Source of the DNA: Leptolyngbyaceae cyanobacterium C42_A2020_001
Lineage (GTDB): Bacteria > Cyanobacteriota > Cyanobacteriia > Leptolyngbyales > Leptolyngbyaceae
Assembly (NCBI GenBank): GCA_015272515.1
Contig: JACYLN010000007.1
Coordinates: forward strand, 62,001-126,000
DNA: 64,000 nt
Reading direction: 5' to 3'
The position numbers and the translations under genes are program-made. Of this stretch, positions 3,658 to 43,413 are shown piece after piece. Every line of letters starts with the position of its first letter. The first letter of the stretch is position 1. Under the pieces are notes generated by a model. The model worked only from the letters and a program-made list of their open reading frames with translations, ran no database searches and was not told where the DNA came from.

Positions 3658-4293
3658 TCAAGCAGAACAGGGTAAAGCCACGCGAACTTCGCTGAAATTT
3701 GGGTAGATAGGGGATGAAATAGCAGGCTCTGCTAAAGGTGATGCAGTGCTACTAGACGAAATGAGATAGATTTCTACATCAGTTTCACCTAAATTAGCAG
3801 AGTCACCTTTGACACAGGCGGGATGTTGCGATCGCACGTTTGCGATCGTTTGTGGCAAAACACCCGCCAACAAAGCCAGCGCATCCGTTGGGATGCCGAC
3901 CAAAATATTGCCACCAAAAAACTCTTCAAACCCAGCAAAGAGATTTTCTGCCCGATGGTCGGCATCTTGTTCTGAGACAATTTTGTGAAGCCACCGAACC
4001 CATTGAATTCTGCGGCTGTATGCTTTTTGGCGGTCTTCGTGAGTTGCCACTTCTACAATTTCAGGCGACCCGATCGCAATGATCTTCCCATACTCATACT
4101 CAAACGGATTACAAATGGCAGCACCCGGACCAGCGAACTCTGCATAGTGCGTCTTACACAAAATTAGACCACTCCGCTTGTGCTCTCCCACGGCGAGTAG
4201 ATGCCTGGACGAGAAGTTTTTCTCAGTCGAATCCCAAATCAAACTTTTAGATAAAAAGTTCTTCACTCGCTTTTCTCGCCTCAGTGCAGACAC
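3658..4293 (-). CDS. Conserved cyanobacteria-type protein of unknown function, upstream of rnc
   Basis: Open for 211 residues. I do not recognise a named family. The central part looks well folded and conserved-like: 'LILCKTHYAEFAGPGAAIC', 'EYGKIIAIGSPEIVEVATHE' and 'RRIQWVRWLHKIVSEQD'. The last ~45 residues are Ser/Ala-rich and low in structure. The first ~40 residues look less conserved, so the true start may be internal, for example a GTG near residue 36. No signal peptide or membrane segment is visible. The short gap to rnc suggests a shared transcript, but no functional link can be shown. Confidence 0.65.
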   Translation of the reverse strand: MSALRREKRVKNFLSKSLIWDSTEKNFSSRHLLAVGEHKRSGLILCKTHYAEFAGPGAAICNPFEYEYGKIIAIGSPEIVEVATHEDRQKAYSRRIQWVRWLHKIVSEQDADHRAENLFAGFEEFFGGNILVGIPTDALALLAGVLPQTIANVRSQHPACVKGDSANLGETDVEIYLISSSSTASPLAEPAISSPIYPNFSEVRVALPCSA

Positions 4294-4549
4294 TCAAGAG
4301 CTGACAGACTTCTGAATGTGAATATTGGCTCAACGCCCAACCGTGGAAACCTTTGTAACAACGAAATCCTTACTCAAAAACTGCCATCGTCAAGTATGTG
4401 CCTACATAGTAAGCAGGTCTCAAACATTCATTATTTTTTTGGTTGAAGGCTTTGTCAAATCTATATATTGCGTTCACAAATGCCAAAAATTCCGTAAAGC
4501 TGATTCACCAACTTCCGGACTGATTATTTAACGCTGACCTGATTCTCTG

Positions 4550-5464
4550 TCAAGGGCTAGATTGTCGGCGACTGGGGAGCCTAAGCGACTTTTTTACGAG
4601 GGTCGGAATTTGAGACGGATAGTTAGCAACTGGAATTTTGGCGCGCTCAAATGCTGTAACTTTGCTGTTGGCTGTACCAATTTCGGTGCCTAGTTCCGAG
4701 ATTTGAGAGGCGATAATTGCGCCAGCGTGTCCCATGCGTCTACCTTTGGGAGCGGTGCGTCCAGCAACGTAGGCAATCACAGGTTTGTCGATCGCTTCGG
4801 CGATGTAATGAGCCGCAGATTCTTCGCTATCTCCCCCAATTTCTCCGACCAACACAATAACTTCTGTATTGTCGTCTTCATCCAAAATTTCTAACCACTG
4901 GGGAAACGAAGACCCCACAATTGCATCACCACCGATACATACTCCCATTGATTGTCCCAGTCCAGCCAGGGTCAGTTCCCGCGCAATCTCGTAGGTCAAT
5001 GTTCCGCTACGGCTAATTAACCCAACCGAACCCGGCGTATAAAATTCACTGGGATGAATCCCCAATAACACCTGACCCGGCACAATAATACCAGGGCTAT
5101 TGGGACCCACAATTAAGGTTTCGGTGGCTTCTGCCTTTCGCAACAAACGCACCACATCTTGGGGTGGCATCCCTTCAGTAATTAGAATGATTTGCCGAAT
5201 TCCAGCGGCGATCGCTTCCAATGCTGCATCTAACGCTGCAAAGGGTTGAACAAAAATGATGGTGGTATCAATTTCACCAACAACCATTTGCGCCATTTCC
5301 ACAAGGTCAAAAATCGGAATCCCATGAAAGACCTTGCCGCCGTAGCCAGGGCTAACTCCTGCCACGATGTTGGTGCCATAAGCCTGCATCAGCGGTGTAT
5401 AGGTGGAACCTAGTGGATCGACGATTCCCTGAATGAGAACTCGGTTGTTGGGTGTGAAGTTCAT
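4550..5464 (-). CDS. sucD: Succinate--CoA ligase, alpha subunit
   Basis: Alpha subunit of succinyl-CoA synthetase, which interconverts succinyl-CoA and succinate with nucleotide triphosphate formation in the TCA cycle. The chosen ATG at 5464 (MNFTPNNRVLIQG) gives 304 residues; the ORF stays open to an ATG at 5494, but the extra ten residues do not fit the family. Visible are the CoA-binding start 'VLIQGIVDPLGSTYTPLM', 'SRSGTLTYEIARELTLAGLG', the Gly-rich 'VGEIGGD' and the phospho-histidine segment 'GRRMGHAGAII' with the catalytic His. The usual GPNCPG loop reads GPNSPG, a Cys-to-Ser change. It lies 190 bp downstream of sucC on the same strand, so co-expression is likely. Confidence 0.93.
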   Translation of the reverse strand: MNFTPNNRVLIQGIVDPLGSTYTPLMQAYGTNIVAGVSPGYGGKVFHGIPIFDLVEMAQMVVGEIDTTIIFVQPFAALDAALEAIAAGIRQIILITEGMPPQDVVRLLRKAEATETLIVGPNSPGIIVPGQVLLGIHPSEFYTPGSVGLISRSGTLTYEIARELTLAGLGQSMGVCIGGDAIVGSSFPQWLEILDEDDNTEVIVLVGEIGGDSEESAAHYIAEAIDKPVIAYVAGRTAPKGRRMGHAGAIIASQISELGTEIGTANSKVTAFERAKIPVANYPSQIPTLVKKSLRLPSRRQSSP

Positions 5465-34562: not shown

Positions 34563-34739
34563 GTCACTCCTGAATCTCGTCCGTAGTTTTGGTCAAACTT
34601 CTGAAATTTAATGTTTGGGGCGAATGTAGGGAGGAAGGTTTCAGCAGTTTGGCGGCGATCGCCCTCAACTCCACCCGATCGCGATCGCGTCCTTCGCTAT
34701 CCTGGATAAGCAAGGTGAATTTGGGGAGTGTTCGTATTT

Positions 34740-36368
34740 ATGAACACGTTGATTGGCAAATCGTTACAGGATGGCAAATACACCCTTGATCAGGTGTTGG
34801 GCGAGGGCGGATTCGGAGTAACCTTTCGAGCTACTCATCACTACCTGCAACAAACGGTGGTGATTAAAACACTGAACCCTTCCAGTCAGCCGCAAGCAGA
34901 ATTTAGCGCTGTGCAGCGGCAGTTTCAGGATGAAGGGCGGAGATTAGCGCTGTGTCTCCATCCCAATATTGTGCGGGTGAGCGATTTTTTCATCGAGAAT
35001 GGGATGCCGTTCCTGGTGATGGATTATATTCCTGGCTACACGTTGGAAGAGATGGTTTTTCCCGATCAGCCTTTGCCAGAAGCGACGGCAATTCACTACA
35101 TTCACCAGCTTGGGGCTGCCTTGCAGGTCGTTCATGCGAATGGGTTGCTGCATCGGGATGTGAAACCGCAAAACGTGATTGTGCGCCAGGGGACAAACAA
35201 CGTTATTCTGATCGATTTTGGCATTGCTCGTGAATTCACGTTGGGAACAACCCAAACTCATACCAGCATTATTTCTACAGGCTACGCGCCGCCAGAACAG
35301 TACTTATCTCAAGCTCCAAGAACGCCCGCAACGGATGTGTATGGACTGGCGGCAACTCTTTATGCGCTGGTGACGGCTCATGTACCAGTGCCATCCATTT
35401 TGCGCGATCGCCAACCCATGCCCGCTCCCAAAGATGTACGCCCTGAAATTACAGCCGCAACCAACCAGGCAATTATGCGTGGGATGGCGCTGGACATCCA
35501 GTATCGTCCTGCAACCGTTGAGGAGTGGTTGCGCCTGTTGCCGGATGGGATTACGGCGAATGCCCCTGTCTCAGTAAACCAGCCTATCTATTCCAAAACG
35601 GCTGCAACCATTCCTGTTAGCCCTCAACTGCTTCCAGAATCCCTTCCTTCCAGTTCCCCAAAAGCCTATACGGCTCCTCCCCAGCGATCGCGTTCAGGGT
35701 TATGGGTGCTTCTAGGAATCGCGGCGATCGCCAGCGCGGGTGCCTCTGCGCTGGGAGCTTACTGGTATCATTCCCAGTTCAACTCAACCAGCCTGATTAC
35801 ACCTTCCCCATCTCCTACTGTTGCGGTTTCACCCTCTCCTTCTCCGGTCGCGCCTCCTTCCCCTGTTGCCCCATCCCCCATCCCTGTCTCTCCGTCTCCG
35901 TCTCCCACCCCTTCGCCTGAGCCAACTCCGCCTGCAACAGATGAGGGTGAGTCTTCAACGGATGTGCCAATCCCTGGTTTTCCGACAGGAACGGGGATCG
36001 ATAGCGTCAAAAGTCAACTCGGAGAACCGACATCATCAGGGGAGGGGTTCTGGGCAAATACGCGATCGGCATTATATGACCTGGTTCCTGACCAAGTAAC
36101 CGTCGCCTACTTGTATGACAAGAACACAAATAGAGTGCGTCAAACAGAAGCTTCATTTGCCCAATCAGTTGATCGCGCTGTGATGGCAAACACCCTCAGC
36201 AGTATGCTTGACGGTGCTCTCACAGCTCCGATTGAAGAAGGGCTAAATAACGTACGCAACCGTAACTCCAACCAGTACAACTTCAGCACTGGAGCCTTGA
36301 AGGGTGTAATTGAGCGGAACGACAAGGATCGCATCTACATTGCTGTTTGGGAAGCCGATTTGCATTAA
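34740..36368 (+). CDS. Membrane Ser/Thr protein kinase with conserved C-terminal domain
   Basis: 542 residues from the ATG at 34740. Hanks-type kinase (about 14-268): Gly loop 'GEGGFGVTF', catalytic Lys43 in 'VVIKTLNP', '[13 protein letters not shown]' (HRD at 138-140), '[10 protein letters not shown]' (DFG at 159-161) and 'GYAPPEQYL'. One membrane helix (about 321-344), then a Pro/Ser-rich spacer (about 353-400). A ~130-residue extracytoplasmic domain ('[20 protein letters not shown]' to '[11 protein letters not shown]') ends the protein. The last domain may sense or bind an envelope ligand; I do not recognise it. Ends 3 bp from a convergent gene. Confidence 0.9.
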
Positions 36369-37366: not shown

Positions 37367-40300
37367 TTATTGGGGATGCTGCTGGCAAAATTCTTGAGTT
37401 TCGGTGAAGGTTTTGGTGTGAGTTTGCAAGTAATCATTTGTCCATTCGCAGCCGCGCGCTAGAAGTTTATCTAATTCGCCCTGAATCGCAAACTTCCATA
37501 ACAAAATAGTTTGATCTTCGCTAGCCGTAGCTAGCAGCGTTCCATCACGGCTAAAACTCACATCACTAACGCGATCGCGATGTCCCCGCAGGGTTGTAAT
37601 CAGCTTGCCATCGTGTTTCCACAATTTCACGGTGCCGTCATAACTGGCAGTCGCAATAAAGCGATCGTCATCGCTAAACGTTGCCGCAACAACTCCGTCT
37701 TCGTGCCCTCTGAGCGTGAGCAAGAGTTGCCCGTTACGGCTCCACACCCTTGCCGTTCCGTCATAGCTAGCAGTCAAAACTTGGTCACCTGCATGACTGA
37801 AAGTAGCGTTATACACCCATCCCTGGTGTCCCTTTAGTTGAGTGATGACGGTTCCCTGCAAGGTCATCATTTGCACCGTATTATCCCACCCGGAAACAAC
37901 CAGGGTTCGTCCATCGGGGCTGAAGCTGGCTGAGAGCAGCCCTCGGTTGAAATTTTGCAAGCTGCGAATCTGTGTGCCATCCCGCCGCCACAGCCGCACC
38001 GTTTGATCTGCGCCAGCCGAGACGAGCATTTTTCCGTCTGGGCTGAACCTCACCGAGTGCACAGGCCCCGCGTGCCCAATCAGCGTTTTGAGTAATTGCC
38101 CGCTGCGGTTCCAGAGTTTGATTGTATGGTCGGAACTGGCGGAGGCAAGCAGTTTGCTATCTGGACTAAAGCTGACTGACCAAATGATGCCTTGATGGCC
38201 TTTAAGCTGATGCAAGGGCGTACCTTTGCGATCCCAGAGGCGAACAGTAGCATCGGCTCCGGCTGAAGCCAGAATTGTGTCATCTGGGGAAAAAGATACG
38301 CTGTAAACTCTTGCCCAATGGGCTTGCAAGGTTGCCAGGAGGGGACGGTTGAGCGCCCAACGGCGAATGACGCGATCGCCTCCCACGGAGAGCAGCAATC
38401 CATCTCGATGGCTGAAACTGAGGTTACGAATTTGGGCGCTGTGACCAGGTAAGTTTGCAATTAAGGTGCCATTGAGAGTCCACAGTTTAATGGTTTTGTC
38501 CCATCCTGCGGAAGCGATCGTTTTGCCATCCCGGCTGAATTTGGCATCGTTCACCAAAGAACTGTGCCCCGCGATTACTCGAATCGGGGTACCATCTCGA
38601 TTCCACAGGCGCACGGTTTCATCCCAACTGGCAGAAACCAACCGTTTGCCATCGCGGCTAAAGCTCACACTGCGGACCTGAGCCGTATGACCCACCAGCG
38701 TTCTAATCGGTGTCCCGTTCCGGTTCCACAAGCGGATGGTGCGATCATCACTGGCAGAAGCAATCAATTGTCCATCTGGACTAAAAGTCACCGATCTAAC
38801 AGGGGCATTATGTCCTTCCAGAGTTTTTAACAGTTTGCCATTCAGATTCCACAACCGCACCATGCTGTCTTCGCTAGCCGTGGCGATCATGCGCCCGTCG
38901 GGAGAAAAGGCGATCCCCACCACGGGAGCCGTTTGCCGACCTAATGAAACTCGTTGCTGTTTCTCCCCAAGCCGCACTAGAAATGCTTGCCCCTGACTGC
39001 CGTTTCGGCTAGAGCCTCCCACCGCCAAAAACTGCTGATTAGGAGAAAAGGCGACTGCCATGAAAGCATCATTTTGCTGACTGCGGATTTGATTGACTAA
39101 GGCTCCATCTTGATTCCAGATTTTAACGGAGCCATCGTCGCTCGCTGATGCAATGAATTTTGCATCAGGACTGGTATCAACATCCCAAATAATTCCGGCG
39201 TGGGCACCAATGCGTTGGTTTTCTTGCACCCAAAACACCGCTTGCTGTAAAGCTGTGACAACGGTTGATTTGAGTTTCTCGTCGGTTAAGCCAAATTGCT
39301 TGTATTCGATCCCGGCGTGCATGGCTTCTAGCAGCGCTTCAAACGGACGCTCTGACCGAAAGAGTGCTTCAGACGTTCTGGTTTGTGCCCAAACGCGCTC
39401 TTTTTGCGCCTCCATGCGAGAGCGATTGGCGTTTTGATACTGCCGATATGCCGTTAATCCCAACGCGATCGCGGCTAGAGAAATCAAGCTGATCAGCCCT
39501 AGCCCAAAGCGTTGTAGGCGTAAGGTGGCACGCTGCCGGCGAATTTCGGTGGCATTTGAGGCAGTGACGTAATCCCGTTGCAAGCGGGTGGGTTGGGGAT
39601 TTTTAGTGGGATTGTTCAACAGCCATTGCTGAATCTCCTTAAGGGTGCTGCCTCGGAGTAGCAAACTCTCGTCGCGATCGCTGTTCTGCCACTCCAAAGC
39701 TCTTACCAGCAAACGGGTGTGAGTTCGCAAATGCACCGGATCGGTATCCAGTGTCCTCAGCAGAACATTGAAATTGGCATCAAACGCGCCCTTGTGCTGG
39801 TTAAAATCAATCCACTGCACACTCGCTAAACCGGGTGGCAACTTTGCCGGATTCACGGGTTGAATCAGCACCGTAATAATGCGTTTGTTGAGCTTAGTGG
39901 CATACTCCACTTCGCTGGAACAATAGGGCGAATCAATCGAACTGGGTGAGATCACAAACAAAAAATGATCGGAGTTTTCGATCCCGCGGTAAATTTCTTG
40001 TTGAAAGTCGGAACTGCCCGCTGCAATGTTCTCCTGATCAAACCAAGTTGTTTTACCGTGAATTTGCAAGGCATCGTTAAGTCGTCGGGCAAATTCAGAA
40101 TCTTTGCGGGAATAGGAAACGAATACATCCAGCGGCACTCCTTCTGGTTGCCGCAAGCTCTCATGAATAAATTCTTCAATTAGGGGAATTGGATGATGCT
40201 GTTCTCGGTGCTGGGCAATTTTGAGCCACGACTCGGCATGACGCAGGTTATAGCCGCGTAGCAGAACACTGGGATTGCGGTGCTGCCGATCCCACTTCAG

Positions 40301-41443
40301 TGCTTTTGTCAGCAGAATCTTGTGTTCTTCATAGTAGTCGGCATCCTGGTTCAGGATTTTGATCAACTTGGCAACGTCTCGTTCATATTGAGCTTGAGTG
40401 GTGTTGTCGGCAAAGTTGATGAAGTGCAAACTCCGGAGTTCGGGGGGGATGAGGTTGAGATCGGTAGGGCAAATTAGCAGGGGAATGATCCGTTTATTAA
40501 GGCTGAGAGCGTACTGAATTTCTTGCTGACAGTAGGGTGATTTGAGCGAAGCGGGGGAAATTAGGTAAACCACATTATCGGCTTCTTCAATGCCGTGGTT
40601 AATCTCTTGCTGAAAGTCAGCGCCTGTTTGAATGTCTGTTTTGCTGACCCAAACGGTGAGGTTTTCTCGAATCAAGCAATAGCGGAATTGCTCCATTAAT
40701 GCACGATCGCCGCTTGCCCAGGAGATGAATACCTGGGTCATCAGATTGTTGGCGTTTTTGGTGCTTTCGGTGATAAATTCGCAGTGCAGATCGGTCGGGA
40801 TGCAGGGCGGTTGAGTGTCATGAAAGCGGGTTTTGAGCCAGGTTTCGGCTTGTTGCCGTTCTTCCCCAATCAAGAGGTGGTGTGGTTCGCGATGGTGGTG
40901 TTCCCATTCCAAAGCTCTTGCCAAAAATGCGGTATGTTGGCGAACATAAACCCGATCGCGCTCAAAAATTGCCAGTAGATCTTGCAGCGATCGCTCAAAA
41001 TCATCCACCCCTTCGCGGCAATATACCCAGTTAATCTTGCAGATCTCTGGATGCATATTAGGGAAGCTAGAGTGTCGCCCTTGCGCTTGATAGGTTTCCC
41101 ATTGTTCGTCTGTTCCAGTGGGAAAGCGCTGTTGCCAGATTTCACGGTTAATTTGCTCTACGTGTAGCACGGGGATAATCCGTTTGTTGCGCTTCAGCGC
41201 TCGCTCAACTTCTAATGCACAGTAGGGCGAATTGACCGAGTGAGGAGAAATAATAAACAGAAAATTGTCTGCTTTTTCAATGCCGTCGTCGATTTGCTTT
41301 TGATAGTCTACGCCCAGGGGAATATCTTCAAAATCGAACCAGACTTCTAGACCCTGAGCAATCAGGCGATCATTCAATTTCTTGGCAAAAAATTTGCTAT
41401 CCGCCCTGCCATAGGAGATAAAAACATCCTGAAAGCGGTTCAT
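37367..41443 (-). CDS. Triple-TIR, membrane-anchored, 14-blade WD40 protein
   Basis: 1358 residues from the ATG at 41443 (MNRFQDVFISYGRADS); the ORF extends to 41512 but the extra residues are unlike the family. Three TIR domains lie at about 3-160, 237-365 and 438-565, each followed by the same ~65-residue helical spacer ('H..LL..ALEW....' then 'LLRGxxLxxAxxWL'). A membrane helix sits at 646-664. Fourteen WD40 repeats (about 745-1325, 'VxSVSFSPDGKxLASASxD' type) could form two seven-bladed propellers. The tail 'LLARGCEWTNDYLQT' is common in cyanobacterial WD40 signalling proteins. The TIR NADase glutamate equivalent is present in all three (Glu78, Glu308, Glu511). No nucleotide-binding STAND module is present. 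Role unknown: signalling or defence is inference. Confidence 0.9.
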   Translation of the reverse strand: MNRFQDVFISYGRADSKFFAKKLNDRLIAQGLEVWFDFEDIPLGVDYQKQIDDGIEKADNFLFIISPHSVNSPYCALEVERALKRNKRIIPVLHVEQINREIWQQRFPTGTDEQWETYQAQGRHSSFPNMHPEICKINWVYCREGVDDFERSLQDLLAIFERDRVYVRQHTAFLARALEWEHHHREPHHLLIGEERQQAETWLKTRFHDTQPPCIPTDLHCEFITESTKNANNLMTQVFISWASGDRALMEQFRYCLIRENLTVWVSKTDIQTGADFQQEINHGIEEADNVVYLISPASLKSPYCQQEIQYALSLNKRIIPLLICPTDLNLIPPELRSLHFINFADNTTQAQYERDVAKLIKILNQDADYYEEHKILLTKALKWDRQHRNPSVLLRGYNLRHAESWLKIAQHREQHHPIPLIEEFIHESLRQPEGVPLDVFVSYSRKDSEFARRLNDALQIHGKTTWFDQENIAAGSSDFQQEIYRGIENSDHFLFVISPSSIDSPYCSSEVEYATKLNKRIITVLIQPVNPAKLPPGLASVQWIDFNQHKGAFDANFNVLLRTLDTDPVHLRTHTRLLVRALEWQNSDRDESLLLRGSTLKEIQQWLLNNPTKNPQPTRLQRDYVTASNATEIRRQRATLRLQRFGLGLISLISLAAIALGLTAYRQYQNANRSRMEAQKERVWAQTRTSEALFRSERPFEALLEAMHAGIEYKQFGLTDEKLKSTVVTALQQAVFWVQENQRIGAHAGIIWDVDTSPDAKFIASASDDGSVKIWNQDGALVNQIRSQQNDAFMAVAFSPNQQFLAVGGSSRNGSQGQAFLVRLGEKQQRVSLGRQTAPVVGIAFSPDGRMIATASEDSMVRLWNLNGKLLKTLEGHNAPVRSVTFSPDGQLIASASDDRTIRLWNRNGTPIRTLVGHTAQVRSVSFSRDGKRLVSASWDETVRLWNRDGTPIRVIAGHSSLVNDAKFSRDGKTIASAGWDKTIKLWTLNGTLIANLPGHSAQIRNLSFSHRDGLLLSVGGDRVIRRWALNRPLLATLQAHWARVYSVSFSPDDTILASAGADATVRLWDRKGTPLHQLKGHQGIIWSVSFSPDSKLLASASSDHTIKLWNRSGQLLKTLIGHAGPVHSVRFSPDGKMLVSAGADQTVRLWRRDGTQIRSLQNFNRGLLSASFSPDGRTLVVSGWDNTVQMMTLQGTVITQLKGHQGWVYNATFSHAGDQVLTASYDGTARVWSRNGQLLLTLRGHEDGVVAATFSDDDRFIATASYDGTVKLWKHDGKLITTLRGHRDRVSDVSFSRDGTLLATASEDQTILLWKFAIQGELDKLLARGCEWTNDYLQTHTKTFTETQEFCQQHPQ

Positions 41444-42159: not shown

Positions 42160-43413
42160 CTACTCCTCAATTGAGGCTTCTTCTTCATGGCGCAGATCTA
42201 ACAGTTCTTGCTGTTGGGTGCGGCGAGACGGACGGCGGTACTTTTTAAGTTCCAACTTTGGCTCGTAGGTTTTGCGTCCCTGACGACGAGTTTTCACTTT
42301 CAGCGTAGTTTCTTCATTCCGCGTCTGCTCTGAGGCTTCCCGATGGGCGATCGCTTCCTCCAGCAACAGCAAGTAATACTCGTACCGTTCCCATTCTCCC
42401 CGCACAACGCAGCCCGGTTCATCGCGATGTAAACAATCGCTGAATTGACAGGGTGCTGTTACTAACCGCTGGTGAGCTTCGGGAAAGTAGTTTGCAAGGT
42501 CTTCTGGGCTACAGTCGAGTTCTGGCTGGTTAAACCCTGGTGTATCTGCTAGTAACCCCCCTCTGGGCAATTCAAACAGTTCCACGTGGCGCGTCGTATG
42601 GCGACCCCTAGCCAACTTGCCCGACACTTCTCCTACCCGCAAGTTTGCCTGAGGTACCAAATAATTAATCAAGCTAGATTTGCCAACCCCAGACGGTCCC
42701 GAAACCACTGTAATGCGATCGCTCAACTGCTGAAACAGCGTGTCAAGCCCTTGCTGCCTGTGAACGCTGATGAACATTGGCTCATAACCCCACTGTTGTA
42801 AGCGATGTTGCCAGTGAGCCTGCTCCTCTTCTGATGCCAAATCGCTCTTGCTCAGACACAAGCACACATTCAATTCGGTCGATTCCGCCTTCACTAAAAA
42901 CCGTGTAAGCTGATTCGGGTCAAGGGCAGGTTCTACCAGCGCGAAGACCAACAAAATCTGGTTTGCGTTCGCAACGGGTGGACGATCAAGTTCCGACTCT
43001 CGCGGTAAGATTCCTGCGATCGCCCCACGTCCTCCCTGCCAGTCGGGTTCCTCAATCTCCACGCGATCGCCCACCATAACGCGTTGTCCCAGTTTCTTTA
43101 GGCGCGATCGGCGAGTGCAGAGGAGAGTGAAGATTGGTGATTGGTGATTAGTGATTAGTGATTGGGAAGGAGGGATAGGGACTTCTTCTAACTCCTGGCT
43201 TTCGATTCCTGACTGCTGACTCCTGACTCCTGACTTCTCCTCCAATCTAGAATCTGCGATCGACACCCTAAAATCTTCTTGGCTTCTGGCTTCCATCTCC
43301 TTCTCATCTAGCCGCACCAAATAAAAATTTGCCTGAACCGCCAGTACCGTCCCAATCAACCCACCGTCCAATACCTGATTTCGGGCTGATGATTCCTGCA
43401 ACTCAGCACTCAT
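42160..43413 (-). CDS. rsgA: Ribosome small-subunit GTPase RsgA with inserted heptad-repeat segment
   Basis: Circularly permuted GTPase that checks late 30S maturation. 417 residues. OB fold (about 15-135), G4 'CLSKSDLA' (about 187-194), G1 'SGPSGVGKSSLIN' (238-250), G3 'DTPGF' (290-294), and the zinc site Cys322, Cys327, His329, Cys335. The OB fold carries an extra segment at about residues 41-94 that other RsgA proteins lack; residues 60-69 and 83-94 are encoded by heptanucleotide repeats. Low sequence complexity there ('GVRSQQSGIESQELEE') fits an insertion that stayed in frame. The start codon lies in another heptad array. Confidence 0.93.
   Translation of the reverse strand: MSAELQESSARNQVLDGGLIGTVLAVQANFYLVRLDEKEMEARSQEDFRVSIADSRLEEKSGVRSQQSGIESQELEEVPIPPSQSLITNHQSPIFTLLCTRRSRLKKLGQRVMVGDRVEIEEPDWQGGRGAIAGILPRESELDRPPVANANQILLVFALVEPALDPNQLTRFLVKAESTELNVCLCLSKSDLASEEEQAHWQHRLQQWGYEPMFISVHRQQGLDTLFQQLSDRITVVSGPSGVGKSSLINYLVPQANLRVGEVSGKLARGRHTTRHVELFELPRGGLLADTPGFNQPELDCSPEDLANYFPEAHQRLVTAPCQFSDCLHRDEPGCVVRGEWERYEYYLLLLEEAIAHREASEQTRNEETTLKVKTRRQGRKTYEPKLELKKYRRPSRRTQQQELLDLRHEEEASIEE
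43132..43166. repeat. Heptanucleotide repeat array inside rsgA (gattrgt type, five units)
   Basis: Units gattggt, gattggt, gattagt, gattagt, gattggg on the plus strand. They encode about residues 83-94 of RsgA. Confidence 0.9.
43207..43234. repeat. Heptanucleotide repeat array inside rsgA (tcctgac type, four units)
   Basis: Units tcctgac, tgctgac, tcctgac, tcctgac on the plus strand. They encode about residues 60-69 of RsgA. Confidence 0.9.

What the first reader, a model, noticed from the sequence alone, without database searches (positions are those of the whole stretch)
37367..41443. Three TIR modules, one membrane helix and 14 WD40 repeats in one polypeptide
Three TIR domains (about residues 3-160, 237-365, 438-565) are each followed by the same helical spacer ending in an 'LLRG..L..A..WL' motif, then a TM at 646-664, then 14 WD40 repeats. 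Most TIR/WD40 proteins I know carry one TIR. All three keep the Glu (78, 308, 511) at the position used by NAD-cleaving TIR domains. The layout suggests pre-clustered TIRs held at the membrane and triggered by ligand binding to two propellers. It could be a self-contained sensor/effector. No partner or immunity gene is adjacent.
Basis: partly seen in the sequence, partly recalled or inferred. Interest (0 to 1): 0.75.

Follow-up and report, generated by a model that had tools for sequence, protein, structure and literature searches.

The report
Three-TIR membrane receptor with exchangeable sensor
This cyanobacterial gene encodes a membrane receptor with three immune-type TIR enzyme domains inside the cell and a swappable sensor predicted to lie outside; it belongs to a widespread family that appears undescribed, in which only the first TIR keeps a complete active site in every member.

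Summary
A minus-strand ORF (41443..37367, 1358 aa) carries three TIR_2 domains (Glu78/308/511), one TM (646-664) and 14 WD40 repeats. It is not a one-off: 58 of 390 sampled cyanobacterial genomes hold the three-TIR block, and one Bacteroidota plasmid does too. Complete copies carry three TIRs, or five arranged [1-2][1-2]-3. In a tree the three positions separate into distinct groups. TIR1 keeps its Arg/Asp/Glu set in 88 of 88 proteins, TIR2 in 1 of 89, and TIR3 loses the Glu in 9 of 20 CHASE2-type proteins. AlphaFold packs the block tightly (pLDDT 92, pTM 0.88), and no solved chain has this arrangement. The sensor is WD40 or CHASE2 after the same TM; with the positive-inside bias this puts TIRs inside and the sensor outside. 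The window has no partner gene, but relatives do: LSDAT SLOG and DUF4231/SLATT genes, some SLATT proteins fused to C39-peptidase/GH19 domains, lie within 8 kb of 10 of 74 three-TIR genes (0.56 expected). Best reading: a transmembrane NADase receptor feeding an ADPR-type signal to SLOG/SLATT effectors. The activity is inferred, not shown.

The parts
37367..41443 (-). Whole CDS, 1358 aa, TIR x3 - TM - WD40 x14
40964..41437 (-). TIR1 (aa 3-160): canonical, the only TIR whose Arg/Asp/Glu set is invariant in the family; holds a conserved extra segment at about aa 96-138
   Evidence: nearest solved relatives are NADases AaTIR/AbTir
41210..41212 (-). Glu78, predicted catalytic Glu of TIR1
   Evidence: invariant in 81-row alignment A1
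40736..40963 (-). Helical spacer 1 (aa 161-236), LLIG variant of the LLRG motif
40349..40735 (-). TIR2 (aa 237-365): divergent; lacks the Arg and the WxD Asp (here WVS), keeps Glu308
40520..40522 (-). Glu308 of TIR2
40133..40348 (-). Helical spacer 2 (aa 366-437), LLRG motif
39749..40132 (-). TIR3 (aa 438-565): canonical here; nearest solved TIRs SARM1 and Cat1
39911..39913 (-). Glu511 of TIR3 (lost in 9 of 20 CHASE2-type relatives)
39509..39748 (-). Helical spacer 3 (aa 566-645), LLRG motif, positively charged end before the TM
39452..39508 (-). Single TM helix (aa 646-664), predicted N-in/C-out
39206..39451 (-). Linker after the TM (about aa 665-746)
   Evidence: sequence
37493..39202 (-). 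14 WD40 repeats (aa 748-1317), presumably two 7-bladed propellers

Best explanation
A single-pass membrane receptor. A C-terminal sensor outside the cytoplasmic membrane (two WD40 propellers here; CHASE2 or coiled coil in relatives) is joined by one TM helix to a rigid cytosolic block of three TIRs. TIR1 is the NAD+-consuming enzyme. TIR2 is a divergent partner TIR and TIR3 a membrane-side TIR; they are built into the chain so that ligand-driven rearrangement or clustering can quickly complete TIR1's composite active site, which other TIR NADases form only by assembling separate subunits. The product is most likely an ADP-ribose-type signal read by a SLOG (LSDAT) protein and/or a SLATT (DUF4231) membrane effector. 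These are encoded next to the receptor in several relatives and elsewhere in this genome. Shown: domain anatomy, position-specific conservation, family extent, linkage of the genes. Predicted: rigid block, topology. Inferred: NADase activity, the TIR1/TIR2 division of labour, signal identity, effector action, trigger.
For: TIR1 keeps its Arg/Asp/Glu in 88/88 proteins, TIR2 in 1/89, TIR3 in 64/89. Solved relatives of TIR1 are NADases AaTIR/AbTir/SPARTA/Cat1, of TIR3 SARM1 and Cat1, of TIR2 mainly a Hydra Toll-related TIR. TIR2 and TIR3 each form one group in the tree, and TIR1s form another; 5-TIR proteins read 1-2-1-2-3, so TIR1-TIR2 is duplicated as a pair. AlphaFold pLDDT 92.3, pTM 0.88. Active TIR NADases use composite sites between two TIRs (PMC12847820; PMC11364022). 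CHASE2, described as an extracellular small-molecule receptor domain (PMC8195603), replaces WD40 after the same TM; Lys/Arg before versus after the TM are 5.3 vs 3.0 in WD40 types and 5.1 vs 2.3 in the rest. LSDAT or DUF4231 lies within 8 kb of 10/74 triple-TIR genes, expected 0.56; LSDAT is in 46/48 triple-TIR genomes but 28/125 sampled class genomes. SLOG domains bind cADPR made by TIRs in Thoeris (PMC10022894); SLATT is predicted to be an ADPr-regulated membrane effector (PMC9503650).
Against: No activity was measured. In the window LSDAT and DUF4231 are not adjacent; they sit on other contigs. AbTir lacks the Arg counted here, so that residue is not strictly needed (alignment). TIR2 keeps the Glu in 80/89, so it may still be active. 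Predicted packing came without coordinates, so whether TIR1 and TIR2 meet in the BE geometry is not known. In this protein the charge is equal on both sides of the TM (+3/+3), and no other periplasmic WD40 was checked. Strong purifying selection between species is unlike a fast-evolving phage sensor. LSDAT co-occurrence may partly reflect genome size.
Confidence: 0.45

Rival explanations
1. Self-contained NAD-depleting suicide enzyme: ligand binding clusters several receptors, all three TIRs act as NADases and NAD+ is drained; no separate effector is needed.
For: All three Glu are present in this protein. SpbK and Cat1 defend by cleaving NAD+ (PMC12847820, PMC12162218). No partner gene lies in the window.
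Against: TIR2 has lost the WxD Asp in nearly all family members and TIR3 the Glu in about one in eight; equal enzymes should not diverge by position. Linked SLOG/SLATT genes point to a signal rather than depletion.
Confidence: 0.25
2. Cytosolic-facing sensor: the WD40 propellers stay in the cytoplasm (the helix is only a membrane anchor or the topology is reversed) and recognise an intracellular phage or stress product.
For: WD40 domains are mostly cytoplasmic (general knowledge). Bacterial TIR defence proteins such as Thoeris ThsB and SpbK sense phage proteins inside the cell (PMC12578639, PMC12847820). The charge around this protein's TM is balanced.
Against: The TIR block and the C-terminal domain are on either side of one TM, so both cannot be cytosolic if it spans; family-wide positive-inside bias; exchange with CHASE2.
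Confidence: 0.2
3. Non-enzymatic scaffold: TIRs serve as adaptors that recruit another TIR or signalling protein, and enzymatic residues are leftovers.
For: TIR2 resembles a metazoan Toll-related TIR; animal TLR TIRs act as adaptors (general knowledge).
Against: The invariance of TIR1's Arg/Asp/Cys/Glu set in every complete protein is what selection on catalysis produces.
Confidence: 0.1

Closest known systems
Single TIR - LLRG spacer - TM - WD40 proteins of cyanobacteria
   Same: Same order of TIR, helical spacer, TM and WD40; they align to TIR3-TM of this protein; also found next to LSDAT genes
   Different: One TIR instead of three; no TIR1-TIR2 unit
Thoeris (ThsB TIR + ThsA SIR2-SLOG; Thoeris type III ThcB4)
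   Same: TIR domain; a SLOG protein as likely reader of the TIR product; ThcB4 and ThsB models hit the TIRs
   Different: ThcB4 score 110.8, far under its cut-off of 220; no SIR2-SLOG gene adjacent; SLOG here is the LSDAT (TRPM-type) clade and the effector SLATT; the TIR is a membrane receptor
Animal Toll-like and IL-1 receptors
   Same: One TM joining an outside sensor to cytosolic TIR
   Different: Order reversed, three TIRs, predicted enzymatic; WD40/CHASE2 instead of LRR/Ig; a resemblance of layout, not homology of the whole protein
SARM1, SpbK, Cat1, AbTir/AaTIR TIR NADases
   Same: TIR fold and active-site motif; composite active site between two TIRs as a model
   Different: They assemble one TIR per chain; no solved chain matches the three-TIR block (best TM-score 0.19 of query)
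CHASE2 sensor proteins
   Same: TM-CHASE2-TM architecture in the second branch of this family
   Different: Output is three or five TIRs
SLOG/SLATT nucleotide-signal systems (Burroughs/Aravind)
   Same: LSDAT SLOG and SLATT genes linked; TIR-SLATT neighbourhoods already noted in phages (PMC9503650)
   Different: Input is a transmembrane multi-TIR receptor; some SLATT proteins carry C39-peptidase/GH19 domains

Membership tests
TIR domain (Pfam TIR_2) | Match over curated cut-off | tested here: met
   Three stretches, 284.6 bits vs cut-off 28; 91.9-112 bits each
TIR NADase | Catalytic Glu on helix alphaC with surrounding motif | tested here: met
   Glu78/308/511; in this protein the full R/D/E set is in TIR1 and TIR3, not TIR2
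TIR NADase | NAD+ cleavage | not testable with these tools
   Needs an assay
WD40 propeller protein | WD40 repeats in multiples of about seven | tested here: met
   14 repeats; best solved match 2ymu
Thoeris | ThsB/ThcB model over cut-off | tested here: not met
   NF058526 110.8 vs cut-off 220
Thoeris | Adjacent ThsA (SIR2-SLOG or other SLOG/Macro effector) | tested here: not met
   The scanned neighbours on both sides have no SIR2, SLOG or Macro match; the STALD search of the genome was uninformative, its control was silent
Known defence system in PADLOC-DB | System-level match including partners | tested here: not met
   Only generic TIR and repeat models hit the receptor; LSDAT and DUF4231 proteins hit nothing
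Toll-like receptor-like layout | Sensor outside, TIR inside, one TM | tested here: inconclusive
   Charge bias and CHASE2 exchange favour it; no direct topology data
STAND NTPase immune proteins | NTPase domain between effector and repeats | tested here: not met
   No NTPase among the Pfam or NCBIfam hits listed for the protein; TM and helical linker occupy that place

The most novel reading that the evidence does not exclude
A new class of bacterial transmembrane TIR receptor in which a catalytic TIR (TIR1) is wired in cis to a pseudo-enzyme TIR (TIR2) and a membrane-proximal TIR (TIR3), extendable by whole TIR1-TIR2 units, and whose product switches on a SLOG/SLATT branch in which the membrane effector can carry its own cell-wall-hydrolase-like domains: an outside-in lysis or arrest pathway with a Toll-like layout.
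Probability: 0.3. Interest if true: 0.87.

Novelty: new variant of a known kind. Interest (0 to 1): 0.64.

Why it matters
TIR NADases normally need several proteins to come together before the active site forms. A family that builds a TIR strand into one chain, with one conserved active site and fixed numbers of TIRs (3 or 5), would allow direct tests of which face each TIR contributes and how a membrane sensor triggers it. If the topology and SLOG/SLATT link hold, it would be a bacterial counterpart of a Toll-type membrane receptor with a traceable signal and effector, common in large-genome cyanobacteria.

Tried and rejected
Reading the feature on the plus strand: full of stops. Chance or pseudogene: rejected by family conservation and low dN/dS. 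Recent triplication inside this gene: rejected, since TIR1, TIR2 and TIR3 each cluster with the same position in other species. Thoeris membership: score under cut-off and no ThsA next door. STALD search for ThsA: uninformative, the control was silent. Mobile-element spread of this copy: neighbours are the same in a same-genus species, and there is no phage hit; a few homologues do sit on plasmids. Literature for triple-TIR, TIR-WD40 or TIR-CHASE2 proteins: no description found. The five-TIR fold is less certain (pTM 0.60, 25 rows), so nothing is claimed from it. Promoter/terminator scan: counts at shuffle level. Low Cys content of the WD40 part has no control and is not used as topology evidence.
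Full report
WHAT IS THERE. The feature is a minus-strand ORF, 41443..37367, 1358 aa. Pfam finds three TIR_2 domains and WD40 repeats. Glu78, Glu308 and Glu511 sit in the SPxSxxSPYCxxE motif. One TM lies at 646-664. There are 14 WD40 repeats between 748 and 1317, one of them degenerate, and the best solved relative is 2ymu. The three helical spacers are homologous, with LLIG rather than LLRG after TIR1.

NOT A ONE-OFF. The whole 698-residue N-terminus is 89% identical in a same-genus species and 51-74% in many other genera. In 390 genomes of the class, 58 hold a match at E<=1e-80. A count with an HMM built here gives 89 distinct proteins with exactly three TIRs and six with five; the four with two are cut by contig ends or split, and none has four. 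A relative of 44% identity over 97% of the query sits on a plasmid of Bernardetia (Bacteroidota) from a red alga, with what reads as a coiled coil after the TM. Between the window gene and its same-genus orthologue dN/dS is about 0.03-0.1 (dS saturated), and the gene neighbours are the same.

THE THREE TIRS ARE DIFFERENT THINGS. In a tree of 94 TIR domains, TIR2s form one group (87/92) and TIR3s one group (100/92), while TIR1s fall together in a third with a single stray (a TIR1 split into its own ORF in L147). Alignment columns are few, so inner forks are uncertain. In five-TIR proteins copies 1 and 3 are TIR1-type, 2 and 4 TIR2-type, 5 TIR3-type: [1-2][1-2]-3. The Arg two residues after the betaA Tyr, the Asp of the WxD motif and the Glu are all present in TIR1 of 88 of 88 proteins whose domain is complete, in TIR2 of 1 of 89, and in TIR3 of 64 of 89. 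TIR2 still keeps the Glu in 80 of 89. TIR3 has Glu in 58 of 60 WD40-type but only 11 of 20 CHASE2-type proteins. AbTir lacks that Arg and is active (alignment), so the Asp and Glu carry more weight than the Arg. By sequence TIR1 is closest to solved NADases AaTIR, AbTir, SPARTA and Cat1, TIR3 to SARM1 and Cat1, TIR2 to a Hydra Toll-related TIR. TIR1 alone has an extra conserved segment (about residues 96-138).

ARCHITECTURE. AlphaFold2 on the block with 81 relatives gives mean pLDDT 92.3 and pTM 0.88: three TIRs and their helical spacers are predicted as one packed unit, not beads on a string. Foldseek finds only single TIRs in the PDB (best TM-score over the query 0.19). The tool returned no coordinates, so which faces touch is not known. 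Active TIR NADases form their site between two TIRs through the BE interface (PMC12847820; PMC11364022; for SfSTING a residue from the other TIR completes the site, PMC9402430). A chain with a conserved TIR1 and a divergent TIR2 duplicated as a unit fits a built-in pair, but this is inference.

SENSOR SWAP AND TOPOLOGY. After the same TM the family has WD40 (60 of 89 three-TIR proteins), a CHASE2-like layout (20; Pfam CHASE2 confirmed in the three-TIR L078 and L066 and the five-TIR L033 and L087), or a coiled coil (L131, Bernardetia). CHASE2 is described as an extracellular small-molecule receptor domain (PMC8195603). Lys+Arg in the 20 residues before versus after the TM average 5.3 vs 3.0 for WD40 types (48 proteins higher before, 5 lower) and 5.1 vs 2.3 for the others (30 and 0). 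Both point to TIRs inside, sensor outside. For this protein alone the charge is balanced, so topology rests on the family.

PARTNERS. The window has none next door: methyltransferase and RsgA on one side, two small ORFs and a Ser/Thr kinase on the other. In relatives LSDAT_prok (SLOG of TRPM type) and DUF4231/SLATT genes recur beside the receptor. Within 8 kb, 10 of 74 triple-TIR genes have one, against 0.56 expected for random placement, in six family codes; closely related genomes are not independent, so the exact probability should not be taken literally. In a walk from 40 LSDAT genes, 9 have a one- or two-TIR gene nearby, in six of them a WD40-type gene on the same strand with gaps of about 30-250 bases. 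LSDAT is in 46 of 48 triple-TIR genomes but 28 of 125 sampled class genomes; inside that sample I infer 16 of 16 triple-TIR genomes against 12 of 109 others. Membership of the 125 was partly inferred from listed handles, and genome size is an uncontrolled confounder. The window's genome has one LSDAT and one DUF4231 gene, both on other contigs. Several linked DUF4231 proteins carry Peptidase_C39-like and/or GH19 chitinase-like domains, and one locus has a phage-lysozyme gene next to it. SLOG binds cADPR isomers in Thoeris (PMC10022894), and SLATT is predicted to be an ADPr-regulated membrane effector (PMC9503650).

CONCLUSION. The most likely reading is a transmembrane TIR receptor with one conserved enzyme, TIR1, two specialised TIRs, and an exchangeable sensor, signalling to SLOG/SLATT partners. 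The layout is like a Toll receptor and the chemistry like Thoeris, but membership is not met for Thoeris and not settled for the Toll-like layout. It is a new variant of bacterial TIR receptor; I found no description in the papers I could search, which leave out most subscription journals, and the key SLOG/SLATT paper of 2015 was not held.

Noticed in passing
L091:10120-12435, L094:10632-12827, L116:10549-12171, L173:6321-7862, L021:10261-12039: DUF4231/SLATT membrane proteins fused to Peptidase_C39-like and/or GH19 chitinase-like domains: a holin-plus-lysin-like single polypeptide, beside TIR or LSDAT genes.
   Followed up: partly
L033:283-4863, L133:4428-8960, L134:5284-9774, L132:3-4355, L087:1884-6749: Five-TIR proteins, [TIR1-TIR2]x2-TIR3, all with TM helices beyond the first and no WD40; Pfam CHASE2 confirmed in L033 and L087.
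   Followed up: partly
L014:2090-4558: GUN4 - AAA_35 - Macro domain protein upstream of triple-TIR genes; related proteins near L129, L130 and L131. Macro domains bind ADP-ribose, so another possible reader of a TIR product.
   Followed up: no
L078, L082, L099, L139, L143 neighbourhoods: Many loci, mostly of the CHASE2 type, sit with TPS-CHAT exoprotein, ShlB/POTRA secretion and DUF928 genes.
   Followed up: no
L165, L170, L171, L177, L191, L192: LSDAT SLOG gene directly upstream of single-TIR-WD40 genes, on the same strand with short gaps.
   Followed up: partly
window 42160-43413 (-): RsgA-like GTPase carries an odd low-complexity stretch (SGVRSQQSGIESQELEE...LITNHQSPI) that reads like translated intergenic repeat DNA; the same-genus copy seems to differ there.
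   Followed up: no
window 34728-36368 (+): Ser/Thr kinase with a TM-like segment and Pro/Ser-rich linker, convergent with the two small ORFs downstream of the TIR gene; also conserved in G002.
   Followed up: no
L155:1851-4016 (-) and 4264-5061 (+): The genome's only LSDAT gene is divergently placed beside a gene that reads like a NACHT-type NTPase.
   Followed up: no
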